Source: Armatimonadota bacterium (lineage in GTDB: Bacteria; Armatimonadota; Fimbriimonadia; Fimbriimonadales; Fimbriimonadaceae). Taken from it: a stretch of 64,000 bases of DNA. A model generated the notes under the pieces. That model did not search any database. It was not told the origin of the DNA and worked only from the letters and a program-made list of their open reading frames with translations. The stretch is taken from assembly GCA_022563855.1 (NCBI GenBank), contig JADFMN010000001.1, positions 434,001 to 498,000 of the forward strand, in the 5' to 3' direction. The position numbers were made by a program, and so were the translations under genes. Below, piece by piece: positions 1 to 44,357 of this stretch; position 1 is the stretch's first letter; each line of letters begins with the position of its first letter.

Positions 1-782
1 AGCAGCGTTGTTCCGGAATGAGCGAAAAAGTCAACCACGAGATCGCCAGGATTTGAGCTTGCCCGAATGATTCGATCAATACACTTCAAGGGCTTCTGAG
101 CATAGCAGCCGGAGACGTTCTCCTCCATCCGGTAAAATACCTGCTGGATGTCGACCCAAACGTTGCCCGCCCGAATCGTGTCCGACCGGCTTCGTTCGAG
201 ATTCTCTGTTATTTTCCCATTCACTTCCTTGTAGTACCCGCGCAGAATCTTGGGGATGTCCGTGTATTCGGCATCTACGTTGAACGTTGGCGTTCCCTTG
301 ATGTAGTACAGCAGTTCTTGCCGAACGGCCATCCAGTTCTTTTGAGTTCCATATCCGCGTTGGTTTCGCATCGTGATGAAACTTCGAGGAGCAAATGTTT
401 GATTGCGCATCATCAGCATGAAATCCGGCAAGGGCTGAAAACCGTCGTTTTGATCCGCGCCCAGCCAGACGTAGAATGAGGCGTTTGAATCCAGCACGGC
501 GTCCGTAACCCGCACCCATTTCTGGCACCAGTCGATATACTCGGTGATTGATCGACGTTCGAAGGCCGCGAGATTGTATGGGGGATCGTGAATGGCCAAT
601 TGGGCTCGCTGGCCGGCCATCACGTCTTGGATCGCACGGCCATCCGTAGCGTCGAGACAACCGACGCGGTGCCCGCACACATTATCTTTCCAAATGTCAC
701 CGGGTTGGAGTCGGCAGTGCGGAAGTAATTGCTCTCTGACATGCGGCGCTGCGTCAAGTCGCGGAAGTGGGTTGTTCTTCAT
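1..782 (-). CDS. Site-specific DNA methyltransferase, beta-class N4/N6 type (C-terminus cut by window edge)
   Basis: The reading frame is open from an ATG at 782 to position 1, with no stop inside the window, so it is a partial gene of at least 260 codons. The N-terminal third carries the catalytic motif IV as DPPYN within HDPPYNLAAF. The last residues before the edge read DFFAHSGTTL, the SAM-binding motif I (FxGxGT-like). Motif IV before motif I is the beta-class order of amino-methyltransferases. GGAAGG lies about 11 nt before the start. It probably methylates adenine N6 or cytosine N4. No restriction partner is visible; it would have to lie beyond position 1. A solitary, phage or plasmid-derived enzyme is equally possible. 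Confidence 0.88.
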   Translation of the reverse strand, partial: MKNNPLPRLDAAPHVREQLLPHCRLQPGDIWKDNVCGHRVGCLDATDGRAIQDVMAGQRAQLAIHDPPYNLAAFERRSITEYIDWCQKWVRVTDAVLDSNASFYVWLGADQNDGFQPLPDFMLMMRNQTFAPRSFITMRNQRGYGTQKNWMAVRQELLYYIKGTPTFNVDAEYTDIPKILRGYYKEVNGKITENLERSRSDTIRAGNVWVDIQQVFYRMEENVSGCYAQKPLKCIDRIIRASSNPGDLVVDFFAHSGTTL

Positions 783-40457: not shown

Positions 40458-40709
40458 CTAGTCCAACGCAACATCCGCCAAATCCCATTTCATGAGATTT
40501 GCAATCTTGAAACAAACGATATAGCCACACTTATTACACACGCACTCATAATTCTCGGGCTTTGGAGGGTCGCTTGGACCAGAATATTTCAGCTTTTCTG
40601 GATCATAAATTCTGCCGAATTCCCAGTGGTTTGACTCACAAACTGGGCAATCCGGAGAACCCATCCTCATTGCTCGTTGTGCTTGATCCTGAACTTTGGA
40701 CATGTCCAT
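40458..40709 (-). CDS. Small zinc-ribbon protein of the 40.4-42.0 kb cassette
   Basis: An 83-residue protein with two CxxC pairs, CPVCESNHW (about 21-29) and CVCNKCGYIVCF (about 56-67), spaced as in a zinc ribbon. The rest is short and charged. It is the third gene of a minus-strand cassette, 61 nt after the nuclease gene, and shares its lower GC. The role is unknown; a nucleic-acid-binding accessory is the obvious guess. ATG 40709 is used; ATG 40703 is also possible. Confidence 0.65.
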   Translation of the reverse strand: MDMSKVQDQAQRAMRMGSPDCPVCESNHWEFGRIYDPEKLKYSGPSDPPKPENYECVCNKCGYIVCFKIANLMKWDLADVALD

Positions 40710-40770
40710 TTCATAAGTATGCTCTGTTGAGGATGTGGATGCATCTCAATTGCCACAAGACGCCGATTCT

Positions 40771-41316
40771 CTACTTTGGCTGGACAATTAGCCGAGCTGT
40801 GACTCGTCGACCGTCCAATGTACGATCTCGTTCTATCGCCTTTCGCATCGCTTCTGCGTCTGCGATATGATTGTGCGGGTCATATACGTAGAACCAAATC
40901 TCATTACAGTCCTGGGAATGGGCGTACTGCTCAATGTCCGTTTGCATTTCCCGCTGAACGCTCTTTGCGTGGCTCTTAGAATTGACAAATTTAGCCTCAA
41001 AGAACGCCTTCGCAGCTCGCGATGTGAAGTCAGGTCGAGACGAAATAATCCCTGCCTTCGGCTGCGGATTTTCATCATAGAGATCTGGCAAGATAGGCTT
41101 CAGGATGCTGTACATGAGATCTTGGACTTCGGCCTCGCTGCTGACAGCAAACTTCCCTCTGCCCTTGAGATGTACGGCGATACCGTGAAAGGCCTGAAGC
41201 ACTTGCGTGATAGAACCAACCTCCGATTGCCGACCAGTAGTTAGCTCTGCGCGGCCTGACACAACCTTGGCCAGTGTTTTTGCTAAGCCTACTATTCTCG
41301 CAACACGATTGTCCAA
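40771..41316 (-). CDS. PD-(D/E)XK nuclease, DpnII/MboI-like fold
   Basis: A 181-residue protein. After a helical start, EAEVQDLMYSILKPILPDLY precedes SSRPDFTSRAAKAFFEAKFV, which supplies the PD...ExK catalytic set (Asp in RPDF, Glu and Lys in FFEAKF). IEQYAHSQDCNEIWFYVYDP follows. The order matches small restriction-endonuclease-like proteins of the DpnII/MboI type that occur in defence loci and as restriction-like modules. No methyltransferase partner is adjacent. The start is TTG 41316 with GGGG 8 nt upstream. It lies 15 nt after the winged-helix-like gene, and the two are surely co-transcribed. Confidence 0.8.
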   Translation of the reverse strand: MDNRVARIVGLAKTLAKVVSGRAELTTGRQSEVGSITQVLQAFHGIAVHLKGRGKFAVSSEAEVQDLMYSILKPILPDLYDENPQPKAGIISSRPDFTSRAAKAFFEAKFVNSKSHAKSVQREMQTDIEQYAHSQDCNEIWFYVYDPHNHIADAEAMRKAIERDRTLDGRRVTARLIVQPK

Positions 41317-41331
41317 TCGTTAAGCCCCGGA

Positions 41332-42045
41332 CTACTTTCGGTAAATGTGCTCGCCCATACTCTTGAAGATTTGATCGATCTGCTCAGCTGACATCTCGTG
41401 TGAGATATGGACCTGGATGTCGATATGCACTTCAGGTTCTTTAACGGTCTGTGGTTCGACCTCAGGATCGGCTGGCGGCTTGATATCAGTCTGCACAGGT
41501 GGAGTAGGATTCTCATTCTTAGCCGTTTGTTGGCCCTTTCCGGACTCTTTCAACCCACTGAGTCCCCGATCTCGCGGCACAATGCGATCGGCACCGCCTA
41601 CGCTCTGCAGAAGATTCCAATCACGCATATTGTTGATGATTCCATCAAATACGCCCTTCGCTTGCGCATCTGCAACTCCCCCCTCCTTCTTTAGGAAATC
41701 TAGAACAGCCTGCTCTACAGGCGCAGCATTCTTATATCTATCATGAACCTTCGCGAACAAATCATGGCCAAACAAGATGTCGTAAATTTTGTCAAAATCG
41801 TTACTGACAGCCGCTCGAGCATTGTCACCGAGATCAATATTCTCCGCGTTGTAACTACCTTTCGTAAGCCCGTATTGCCCACCAGCTGTAATCAACTGTC
41901 TGAAAATCTCTGACGAAGATGTAAAGCCCAGATTGTCAGCCAATGTCGGACGGTACATCGGATGACCGGCATTTGCTTCGAGAATTTTCTTGGGAAGCTT
42001 CAGAGCTTCCTTAAGGCTCTTAGGTGGATAGTAGCTTTTTGGCAT
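41332..42045 (-). CDS. Winged-helix-like protein, first gene of the putative defence cassette
   Basis: A 237-residue protein. The N-terminal part (LKEALKLPKKILEANAGHPM, then LADNLGFTSSSEIFRQLITA and QYGLTKGSYNAENIDL) has the repeated-helix, wing-like pattern of DUF5343-type domains found in defence islands. A Pro-rich linker (about 170-205) leads to a short C-terminal motif VHIDIQVHISHEMSAEQIDQ, IFKSMGEHIY, which I remember as a recurring tail of such proteins. It may sense or bind DNA and control the downstream nuclease. TAAAAT lies 8 nt before the ATG as a likely -10 box. The AT-richer composition differs from the flanking tautomerase and fumarase genes. Confidence 0.65.
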   Translation of the reverse strand: MPKSYYPPKSLKEALKLPKKILEANAGHPMYRPTLADNLGFTSSSEIFRQLITAGGQYGLTKGSYNAENIDLGDNARAAVSNDFDKIYDILFGHDLFAKVHDRYKNAAPVEQAVLDFLKKEGGVADAQAKGVFDGIINNMRDWNLLQSVGGADRIVPRDRGLSGLKESGKGQQTAKNENPTPPVQTDIKPPADPEVEPQTVKEPEVHIDIQVHISHEMSAEQIDQIFKSMGEHIYRK

Positions 42046-42053
42046 ATCGCTGT

Positions 42054-42059
42054 ATTTTA
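42054..42059 (-). promoter_or_regulatory. -10 box of the putative defence cassette
   Basis: TAAAAT, eight bases, then ATG 42045. It lies in the 63-nt gap after fumC and suggests that the cassette has its own promoter and an almost leaderless message. Confidence 0.4.
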
Positions 42060-42108: not shown

Positions 42109-43506
42109 TTACGACCCAGGAATTCCCGGCTCGGTGAGGTTCGCGGGGTCGAGGGCTTTCTTTAGGGTCTCTTCGTCGAGCAAACCCATTTCGCGCACGA
42201 CTTCGGGGATGGACTTGCCTTCGGCCAGGGCGATCTTGACGACCTCGGCGGCCTTCTTGTAGCCGATGAAGACGTTCAGCGCGGTCGCCAGAGAAGGCGA
42301 TGTTTCGGCGTACCGCTTGCACGTCTCTTCGTTCGCCGTGATGCCGACGATGCAGTTGTCGGTGTAGGTGTTCAGAGCGTTGGTCAGGATCTGCAGGGAG
42401 AACTGCGCGGAGAACGCCATCGACGGCATCATCACGTTCAGCTCGAGCTGCCCCGCCTGCACGCAGTAGTCGAGCGACTGGCACTGGCCGAGCACCTGGA
42501 ACAGCACGAGGTTCATGTTCTCCGCCATCGAGGGGTTCACCTTCCCCGGCATGATCGAAGAGCCCGGCTGCACCGCAGGAAGATTGATCTCCGCAAGGCC
42601 GGTCAGGGGGCCGGAAGCAAGCAGCCTCAAGTCGTTCGTGATGCGCGTCAGCTCTAGACAGAAAACCCTCAGGCCGCTAGAGAGAGCAGACATACAGAGC
42701 TGCGACTGCATCGCCTCGCGCATGTCGTCGGCAGGCTTAAAGTCGACCCCCGTATAAGACGACAGATTGTCGATGACTTTGAAACGGTATTCGGGGTGCG
42801 TGTTCAGCCCCGTGCCGACCGCGCTGCCGCCGATTCCTAGAACTTCCAGTTCCGAAGCCGCGTACGCCAGCCACTTGCGAGACCGCCGCACTGCCGCGCC
42901 GTACGCAGCAAACTCCTGACCCAGTCGGATGGGCACCGCGTCCTGCAAGTGCGTACGACCCGACTTGAGAACCCCGTCGAACTCCTCGCCCTTCGCCTCC
43001 AAAGCGTCAGCCAGTTTATCGACGGCGGCGAAAAGGTCCGTCATCATCGTGCGCGCCATGATCCGCATCGCCGTCGGAAACGTGTCGTTGGTGGACTGGC
43101 CGTAGTTCGGGTGGTCGTTCGGGCTGACCTTCTTGTACTCGCCTTTGGCCCCGCCCAGGATCTCTTCCGCACGGTTGGCGAGCACCTCGTTGCAGTTCAT
43201 GTTGAGCGAAGTCCCCGCGCCCATGTGGAACACATCCACCGGGAACTGGTCGCGCATCTTCCCTTCCAGAATCTCGTCGCAAGCCTGGATGATCGCCTCG
43301 CCGATCTCCTTGTCGAGCAGCCCGAGATCGGTGTTCGCGCGCGCGCACGCCTTCTTCAGCATGATGTACGCGTCGATCATCTTCGGGTGCGATGTCAGCC
43401 CGCTTATTTGGAACAGCTGGCGGCTGCGCTCGGCCTGGCTGCCCCAGTAGGCGTCGGCTGGCACCTGGACGTCGCCCAAGGAGTCCTTCTCGATCCGAAA
43501 GTCCAT
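42109..43506 (-). CDS. fumC: Class II fumarate hydratase
   Basis: A 465-residue enzyme of the fumarase/aspartase superfamily that converts fumarate to malate in the TCA cycle. It starts FRIEKDSLGDVQVPADAYWG. The conserved segments are SPNDHPNYGQSTNDTFPTAM, GRTHLQDAVPIRLGQEF and the superfamily signature PGSSIMPGKVNPSMAE, with GSAVGTGLNTHPEY in between. It lacks iron-sulfur motifs, as expected of class II. An aspartase is the main alternative; length and motifs favour fumarase. TAACCT lies 6 nt before ATG 43506. Confidence 0.94.
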   Translation of the reverse strand: MDFRIEKDSLGDVQVPADAYWGSQAERSRQLFQISGLTSHPKMIDAYIMLKKACARANTDLGLLDKEIGEAIIQACDEILEGKMRDQFPVDVFHMGAGTSLNMNCNEVLANRAEEILGGAKGEYKKVSPNDHPNYGQSTNDTFPTAMRIMARTMMTDLFAAVDKLADALEAKGEEFDGVLKSGRTHLQDAVPIRLGQEFAAYGAAVRRSRKWLAYAASELEVLGIGGSAVGTGLNTHPEYRFKVIDNLSSYTGVDFKPADDMREAMQSQLCMSALSSGLRVFCLELTRITNDLRLLASGPLTGLAEINLPAVQPGSSIMPGKVNPSMAENMNLVLFQVLGQCQSLDYCVQAGQLELNVMMPSMAFSAQFSLQILTNALNTYTDNCIVGITANEETCKRYAETSPSLATALNVFIGYKKAAEVVKIALAEGKSIPEVVREMGLLDEETLKKALDPANLTEPGIPGS

Positions 43507-43537: not shown

Positions 43538-43720
43538 GGGAGGGCGAGCGTCCCCGCGAGCCGCCGACACCGCAATGCTCACTTGCAAGGGAGGGCGAGC
43601 GTCCCCGCGAGCCGCCATCAGCGGCAACCTCCCTAGAAGCGGGGAGGGCGAGAGTCCCCGCGAGCCGCCGCCAGCGCCAGCATCCCTAGAAGCGGGAGGG
43701 CGAGAGTCCCCGCGAGCCGC
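43538..43720 (+). repeat. REP-like repeat array, four copies
   Basis: Four copies of a 27-base unit (starts 43538, 43589, 43642 and 43694, about 52 bp apart). The 5' half is GGGAGGGCGAG(C/A)GTCC and the 3' half CCGCGAGCCGC. The core GGC-GA-GCG-TCCC-CGC-GA-GCC folds as a hairpin with a symmetric G-A internal loop. The first two copies carry GAGCG, the last two GAGAG. The array sits at the 3' end of a RAYT gene and is matched by inverted copies on the other side. Confidence 0.85.
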
Positions 43721-43762
43721 CGACAGCGCAACGCCTGAATATATGGCAACTGCCTCGCTAGC

Positions 43763-44233
43763 CTAAGGCCCAAACCAACGTAATTCGTTCAGCTCTCCTT
43801 GATACGGCCACTCCTCCGGAACGACGGCAAGACCTTTGCGAACCGGATTGTGACGCACATACTGCCACTTCTCCTCGTACGCTCTTCCCGTCCTAATCTG
43901 GGTATCCCAAAATCCGCTCTGCCAGAATCCCCTCGCCTCAGAACCGTCGCTCTGGGTGACCAGGCGATTCCAATATGCGATCCAAGCCTTAAGATTTGGG
44001 TCGGTCGTGTTCGGCGAGCAGAAGAAATGTATGTGGTCGGGCATGATCACGTACCGTCCTACCAGCCAGTGAACTGCCGCCGCCCACGCTTCGGTAATCA
44101 GGATGCACATATCGTCGTTTGCGAGCAGTGGTCCTCGATTGCGCGTGCAAACGGTGACAAACAGAATATCGGAGCGATTCGTCAACGTCAGGATCGAGTT
44201 TTCAGATGGCTTTCTGCGGACGGTTTTCTCCAT
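43763..44233 (-). CDS. REP-associated tyrosine transposase (RAYT, Y1 family)
   Basis: A 156-residue Y1-type HUH enzyme. FVTVCTRNRGPLLAN begins the fold; VIMPDHIHFFCSPN carries the HxH metal motif; KWQYVRHNPVRKGLAV carries the catalytic tyrosine in the Y-x3-NP context typical of RAYTs. RAYTs cut and join single-stranded REP palindromes and are thought to spread them; most are domesticated single-copy genes. Two inverted repeats upstream and four downstream share one consensus, so this enzyme and its REPs form a complete unit. AGGA precedes the ATG at 44233. Confidence 0.92.
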   Translation of the reverse strand: MEKTVRRKPSENSILTLTNRSDILFVTVCTRNRGPLLANDDMCILITEAWAAAVHWLVGRYVIMPDHIHFFCSPNTTDPNLKAWIAYWNRLVTQSDGSEARGFWQSGFWDTQIRTGRAYEEKWQYVRHNPVRKGLAVVPEEWPYQGELNELRWFGP

Positions 44234-44288
44234 TTCCTGAAGACCTTCGAGGCAATCACATTACCTTGCAGAGCGAAACTGCGCGACA

Positions 44289-44357
44289 GCGGCTCGCGGG
44301 GACGCTCGCCCTCCCGAAATTGCACGTTTAGCGGCTCGCGGGGACGCTCGCCCTCCC
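44289..44357 (-). repeat. REP-like repeats, two inverted copies upstream of RAYT
   Basis: Two copies of the same 27-base unit as at 43538-43720 but on the opposite strand (44289-44315 and 44331-44357), 42 bp apart. Both carry the GAGCG version. The second ends 8 bases before the stop codon of the TPR gene. With the downstream copies, they flank the transposase in inverted orientation. Confidence 0.85.

What the first reader, a model, noticed from the sequence alone, without database searches (positions are those of the whole stretch)
40458..42059. Candidate uncharacterised defence cassette: winged-helix-like protein, PD-(D/E)XK nuclease, zinc ribbon
Three minus-strand genes with gaps of 15 and 61 nt form an AT-richer block between housekeeping genes (tautomerase, fumarase), with their own -10 box at 42054-42059. 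Seen in the sequence: RPDF...FFEAKF catalytic set in the middle gene, two CxxC pairs in the small gene, and a repeated-helix N-terminus with a conserved-looking C-terminal HIS...QIDQIF motif in the first. Family knowledge: small DpnII/MboI-fold nucleases and DUF5343-like proteins recur in defence islands. There is no methyltransferase partner, so self-protection would need another mechanism. That this trio is a system is inference.
Basis: partly seen in the sequence, partly recalled or inferred. Interest (0 to 1): 0.75.

Follow-up and report, generated by a model that had tools for sequence, protein, structure and literature searches.

The report
Winged-helix sensor with swapped nuclease toxin
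Two adjacent bacterial genes look like a small anti-virus suicide switch: a sensor protein whose short tail is elsewhere always followed by an RNA-cutting toxin gene is here followed by a DNA-cutting enzyme gene, which suggests that such switches plug different toxins into one socket.

Summary
Three minus-strand genes lie in the most AT-rich 1.6 kb of the window (GC 0.485 against 0.599, sd 0.022). Gene A (237 aa) has a winged helix (residues 9-82), a disordered linker and a conserved C-terminal tail. Gene B (181 aa) is a DpnII/MboI-type PD-(D/E)XK nuclease (Pfam E 4.6e-24) with D96, E107 and K109 intact. Gene C is a lone zinc ribbon with no relatives found.

New finding: A's tail (VHIDIQVHIS..EQIDQIFKSMGEHIY) ends otherwise different sensor proteins (DUF5343 in many). 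In 15 of 15 complete cases elsewhere the next gene encodes a HEPN-type protein of one of two families. Six of the 15 pairs lie in restriction-modification loci. Here the partner is a DNase instead. B and the HEPN proteins share a weak N-terminal helix motif (0 of 365 control N-termini score as high as B), a candidate docking site for the tail. A's N-domain is elsewhere fused to TIR-like effectors.

Best reading: a two-gene abortive-defence module, A sensing and B killing, acquired horizontally. The zinc ribbon's membership is unsupported. It is a new variant of a computationally listed candidate (PADLOC PDC-M34A). Nothing was tested at the bench, and the tail-plus-nuclease pairing rests on one genome.

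The parts
41332..42045 (-). Gene A: 237-aa sensor/adaptor (winged helix, helical domain, disordered linker, conserved tail)
41800..42021 (-). Winged-helix domain of A, residues 9-82
   Evidence: VIA-align Z 8-9 to MarR-family and RuvB winged helices; the N-domain is fused to TIR-like effectors in L032 and L036
41440..41595 (-). Predicted disordered linker of A, residues 151-202
   Evidence: pLDDT under 50
41335..41439 (-). C-terminal tail of A, residues 203-237 (candidate effector-docking or oligomerisation element)
   Evidence: shared with 15 complete proteins elsewhere, each followed by a HEPN-type gene
40771..41316 (-). Gene B: 181-aa DpnII/MboI-like nuclease effector, TTG start 15 nt after A
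   Evidence: PF18742 4.6e-24; Aga_Helical-REase 7.5e-20; PDB 23wq EcbAgaN 1.5e-6
41248..41310 (-). N-terminal helix of B, residues 3-23 (candidate docking helix)
   Evidence: helix in model (low pLDDT there); resembles N-termini of the 15 HEPN partners
40822..41211 (-). PD-(D/E)XK nuclease domain of B, residues 36-165
40990..41031 (-). Catalytic D96...E107-x-K109 of B
   Evidence: invariant in A3 alignment, with E61
40458..40709 (-). Gene C: 83-aa zinc ribbon, CPVC...CNKC; co-oriented, membership not supported
   Evidence: no relatives in 290 other phylum genomes, plasmids or phages

Best explanation
A and B form a two-gene abortive-infection module. A is a winged-helix sensor or adaptor that holds its effector through its C-terminal strand-helix tail; B is a PD-(D/E)XK DNase that docks through its N-terminal helix and stays inactive until A is triggered (by phage DNA, a nucleoprotein or a replication intermediate) and clusters B, whereupon B cuts DNA without sequence preference and the infected cell dies or stalls. 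Shown by computation: folds, intact catalytic residues, the tail's link to effector genes elsewhere, foreign base composition. Inferred: the physical tail-helix contact, the trigger, the target and the defence function.
For: Tail-bearing genes elsewhere are followed by a HEPN-type gene in 15 of 15 complete cases, starting from -23 to +8 nt of the tail's stop in the 10 measured (families). Six of the 15 lie in R-M-type loci. A's N-domain is fused to a CAP12/Pycsar TIR domain (2.1e-17) and to a nucleoside-deoxyribosyltransferase-like domain elsewhere. B's closest solved relative by sequence is EcbAgaN; PADLOC places B's domain with short-Argonaute helical-REase effectors. The effector nuclease of SPARDA is inactive alone and works after tetramerisation (PMC12205087). 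A profile of DUF4145-HEPN N-termini ranks 4 of 5 Ymh-HEPN N-termini above all but at most 1 of 365 controls; with a profile of all 15, none of 365 controls scores as high as B. Low GC and absence from relatives.
Against: No second example of tail-sensor plus DpnII/MboI nuclease was found. B's helix match is weak: 8 of 365 controls with the DUF4145 profile alone, 60 of 5000 shuffles with the full profile, and the Ymh windows were placed by hand. The window pair lies in no defence island. AlphaFold gives the tail and B's N-helix low confidence. No complex could be modelled.
Confidence: 0.58

Rival explanations
1. A toxin-antitoxin pair: A neutralises B and represses the operon through its winged helix; the tail is the antitoxin's toxin-binding segment. 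Function is stabilisation of the locus rather than sensing phage.
For: Small two-gene operon, DNA-binding fold at the N-terminus, disordered linker and short C-terminal toxin-contact candidate are typical of type II antitoxins (established knowledge); folds.
Against: The same N-domain is fused to TIR-like effectors and the same tail sits behind DUF5343, a sensor-like modularity; six of 15 related pairs lie within R-M-type loci.
Confidence: 0.22
2. A two-subunit restriction enzyme without methylase (type IV-like): A recognises a DNA sequence or modification and B cleaves it.
For: B's domain is the DpnII/MboI restriction fold; A has a winged helix.
Against: The tail's partners elsewhere are HEPN-type proteins, so the sensor is not tied to DNA cleavage; B's nearest solved relative by sequence is an Argonaute-associated effector.
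Confidence: 0.12
3. Chance neighbours or decaying foreign genes with no joint function.
For: The exact trio is found nowhere else; C has no relatives.
Against: All frames intact, catalytic set intact, short A-B gap of 15 nt, close to the spacing of the related pairs, tail-effector link elsewhere without exception among complete tails.
Confidence: 0.08

Closest known systems
PADLOC candidate PDC-M34A (DUF5343 proteins with this tail)
   Same: Same C-terminal tail; upstream gene of a two-gene unit; related proteins in L037, L038, L040 score 1e-40 to 4e-49
   Different: A matches only over residues 173-234 (E 0.0015); its N-domain is not DUF5343; its partner is a DNase, not a HEPN-type protein
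Short prokaryotic Argonaute systems of the SPARDA/Aga type (effector nuclease of PDB 23wq EcbAgaN; PADLOC Aga_Helical-REase and Aga_HEPN)
   Same: B's nuclease domain is homologous; the same swap between REase and HEPN effectors is catalogued there
   Different: No Argonaute and no APAZ domain here; the sensor is a winged-helix protein
DpnII/MboI type II restriction endonucleases (PF18742)
   Same: Domain family and catalytic motif
   Different: No methyltransferase neighbour; short protein with an extra N-terminal helix; predicted to be triggered
TIR-effector proteins with the same N-domain (L032, L036)
   Same: N-terminal 110-160 residues (phmmer 4.9e-12 and 4.9e-6)
   Different: Effector fused in the same chain instead of supplied by a second gene
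PD-Lambda-3 (PADLOC PD-Lambda-3_B)
   Same: Its B protein matches the Ymh-HEPN partners of tail proteins (5e-17)
   Different: No such HEPN gene in the window

Membership tests
DpnII-MboI nuclease domain (PF18742) | Score above Pfam gathering cut-off | tested here: met
   85.1 bits against 27
DpnII-MboI nuclease domain (PF18742) | PD-(D/E)XK catalytic residues and fold | tested here: met
   D96, E107, K109 invariant with E61; BglII Z 8.6, BamHI Z 7.5, BstYI Z 7.8
DUF5343 (PF17278) | Profile match over the N-terminal domain | tested here: not met
   No Pfam match at E 1; hhalign probability 0.3%
PADLOC PDC-M34 | PDC-M34A match along the whole protein | tested here: not met
   Only residues 173-234, E 0.0015
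PADLOC PDC-M34 | Same C-terminal tail | tested here: met
   78% identity over 32 aa to L037, E about 1e-10
SPARDA/Aga short Argonaute | Homologous effector nuclease domain | tested here: met
SPARDA/Aga short Argonaute | Short Argonaute plus APAZ next to the nuclease | tested here: not met
   Neighbours are A, C, fumC/aspA and tautomerase-like genes
Type II restriction-modification | Cognate methyltransferase nearby | tested here: not met
   None beside B; the DNA methylase ORF seen in the window is at 1-782, 40 kb away
Abortive-infection system | Phage protection with death or dormancy of infected cells | not testable with these tools
   needs plaque and survival assays

The most novel reading that the evidence does not exclude
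Bacterial sensors of several folds share one plug-and-socket: a 33-residue strand-helix tail on the sensor and an amphipathic N-terminal helix on the toxin. Any toxin carrying the helix (two HEPN families, a PD-(D/E)XK DNase) can be wired to any sensor carrying the tail (DUF5343 or this winged-helix domain), so the effector gene next to a tail gene is predictable and swappable.
Probability: 0.4. Interest if true: 0.75.

Novelty: new variant of a known kind. Interest (0 to 1): 0.55.

Why it matters
If true, it shows that a listed but, as far as I could find, untested defence candidate (the DUF5343-tail family) is one branch of a modular scheme in which sensor and toxin are exchanged independently through a short shared interface, as short-Argonaute systems exchange REase and HEPN effectors. 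The tail motif then becomes a search handle for new effectors, and tail-helix pairing can be tested with a handful of residues.

Tried and rejected
DUF5343 membership of A: no Pfam match, hhalign probability 0.3%. Relatives of A on plasmids, and of its tail on plasmids and phages: none; other tail proteins on plasmids: none. B in viral contigs: none; B's plasmid relatives that I opened (L062, L063) have longer N-termini and no tail gene next to them. Ymh-HEPN plasmid hits: the annotated proteins are mostly longer (about 210-575 aa) and were not examined for tail partners beyond the annotation. A first blind motif search locked on to the PPxEG linker of HEPN partners and did not find B; anchored profiles followed. 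A weak B-like hit beside fumC in L018 looks like a frame artefact, with no catalytic motif. Fold search gave no clear match for A beyond generic winged helices; the second helical domain was barely tested. Literature: no paper in the held library uses 'DUF5343' or 'PDC-M34'. Flanking repeats: no target-site duplication found; a 17-nt inverted repeat around gene C looks like chance. No Rfam match.

Full report
What is there. Three intact minus-strand ORFs lie between an aspartase/fumarase-family gene and a tautomerase-like gene: A (41332-42045), B (40771-41316, TTG start) and C (40458-40709), with gaps of 15 and 61 nt. The block is the most AT-rich 1.6 kb in the 64-kb window, about five standard deviations below the mean, with GC3 near 0.5 against 0.74. 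The proposed -10 box is present but has no -35 and sits 8 nt from the ATG; the promoter scan finds nothing above shuffles.

Gene B is a nuclease. It matches the DpnII-MboI family at 4.6e-24, PADLOC's Aga_Helical-REase at 7.5e-20 and, with a seven-sequence profile, the EcbAgaN chain of PDB 23wq at 1.5e-6. E61, D96, E107 and K109 are invariant across relatives of 21-29% identity. The model (pLDDT 77) aligns best to PD-(D/E)XK enzymes: CdiA-CT Z 8.9, BglII 8.6, BstYI 7.8, BamHI 7.5, Can2 and Avs4 7.0. Most Z values are middling, but most of the top rows are this one fold. An N-terminal helix (residues 3-23) precedes the domain. In the other genomes of the phylum the domain occurs behind other N-terminal regions, including ones that look QatC-like by eye.

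Gene A is modular. Residues 9-82 are a winged helix (Z 8-9 to MarR and RuvB winged helices); residues 151-206 are predicted disordered; a short helix closes the protein. Its N-domain is shared with L032 and L036, where it is fused to a CAP12/Pycsar TIR domain (2.1e-17) and a nucleoside-deoxyribosyltransferase-like domain (1.6e-4, below cut-off). More distant copies end in other short C-terminal segments. It is not DUF5343.

The tail is the key. A's last 35 residues match the ends of proteins with other N-domains, DUF5343 in those first scanned. I collected every tail gene the tools could reach: own phylum, GTDB contigs, viral contigs and samples of two other phyla. Fifteen loci have a complete tail followed by readable sequence: L037-L043, L053-L055, L093-L095, L097, L098. 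In all 15 the next gene is same-strand and encodes a HEPN-type protein of roughly 170 aa: Hypoth_Ymh (PF09509, 1e-28 or better) in five, DUF4145-like in ten. The DUF4145 matches are near or below Pfam's cut-off and one (L094) has none, but the six first found align over their whole length with 60% mean column identity. In ten measured loci the effector starts from -23 to +8 nt of the tail's stop; in the window the gap is 15 nt. One degenerate tail (L052) is followed by a different gene and one (L096) lies at a contig end. Conversely, a DUF4145 relative without a tail gene upstream (L076) has a different N-terminus. The Ymh partners keep RNPRAH, an R-x4-H motif; in the DUF4145-like ones the SAH histidine is kept but the basic residue is displaced, so their activity is open.

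Context elsewhere points to defence. Six of 15 pairs lie in R-M-type loci: inside a type III res/RhuM/mod operon (L041), behind large helicase genes (L042, with a NOV_C domain; L101, the wider stretch of L093, where the helicase is read by eye and a large further gene follows that I read as a DUF1156-type methylase), beside a methylase-Mrr gene (L038), an HsdM gene (L039) and an Eco57I-type methylase (L055). The HEPN survey PMC3710099 already reports DUF4145 and Ymh domains in R-M operons, and DUF4145 fused to a 'DpnII/MboI-NTD'.

A possible socket. If one tail serves unrelated toxins, these should share a feature. DUF4145-type partners align from their PPxEG linker; the 15 residues before it form an amphipathic pattern. 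A profile built only from these ten ranks four of five Ymh N-termini above all but at most one of 365 control N-termini; 8 of 365 controls score as high as B. With all 15 in the profile, none of 365 N-terminal controls, 11 of 2446 internal segments and 60 of 5000 shuffles of B's own N-terminus score as high as B. The Ymh windows were aligned by hand, and an earlier blind search missed the pattern. I treat this as suggestive, not shown.

How it most likely works. A senses infection through its winged helix and helical domain, holds B by its tail, and on triggering gathers B molecules so that the nuclease becomes active. This follows the SPARDA precedent, in which the effector nuclease alone is monomeric and inactive and tetramerisation turns on collateral cleavage (PMC12205087). 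Trigger, contact and target are inference. Toxin-antitoxin is the main rival.

Gene C. The zinc ribbon has no detectable relative in 290 other phylum genomes, 72,556 plasmids or 50,697 phages, and no tail locus I read carries a clear counterpart beside the pair. It may be co-transcribed, but membership is unsupported.

Distribution. A's tail occurs in 5 of 291 phylum genomes, B-like domains in 6, never together except here; none of 29 relatives' fumC loci shows A or C, and none a credible B, within 1.5 kb. The genes are therefore sporadic and probably acquired. Absence of the tautomerase gene from 60 relatives means the insertion point cannot be compared.

Verdict. An ordinary-looking but probably real defence-type pair and a new variant of a computationally listed candidate. 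The sensor-effector wiring it reveals is more interesting than the window locus itself.

Noticed in passing
window 43538-44357: Compact REPtron: four head-to-tail 52-nt REP units (43538-43746), a REP-associated tyrosine transposase gene at 43763-44233 minus (NCBIfam NF047646, 3.7e-23) and two inverted REP units (44289-44357). All six REP copies in the window are here.
   Followed up: partly
window 42109-43506: The 'fumarase' scores best as aspartate ammonia-lyase subfamily PRK12273 (602 bits) and below the fumC_II and aspA equivalog cut-offs; its true substrate is open.
   Followed up: no
window 1-782: N6/N4 DNA methylase ORF cut by the window edge (PF01555, 3.2e-24), 40 kb from the trio.
   Followed up: no
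L041 2461-10387: Type III-like res and mod genes with RhuM and a tail-HEPN pair inserted between them.
   Followed up: partly
L052 943-2368: A DUF5343 protein with a degenerate tail (VALNVQIHLPASADASFIDSVFRSLAHHVL) is followed not by a HEPN gene but by one that looks DUF3800-like by eye.
   Followed up: no
L067, L068, L069, L070: Distant copies of A's N-domain end in other short C-terminal segments, several of strand-helix look, with no obvious partner gene; possibly other docking codes.
   Followed up: no
plasmid records H3-H40: Many enterobacterial plasmids carry a DpnII/MboI-like nuclease annotated 'malate dehydrogenase', a likely misannotation.
   Followed up: no
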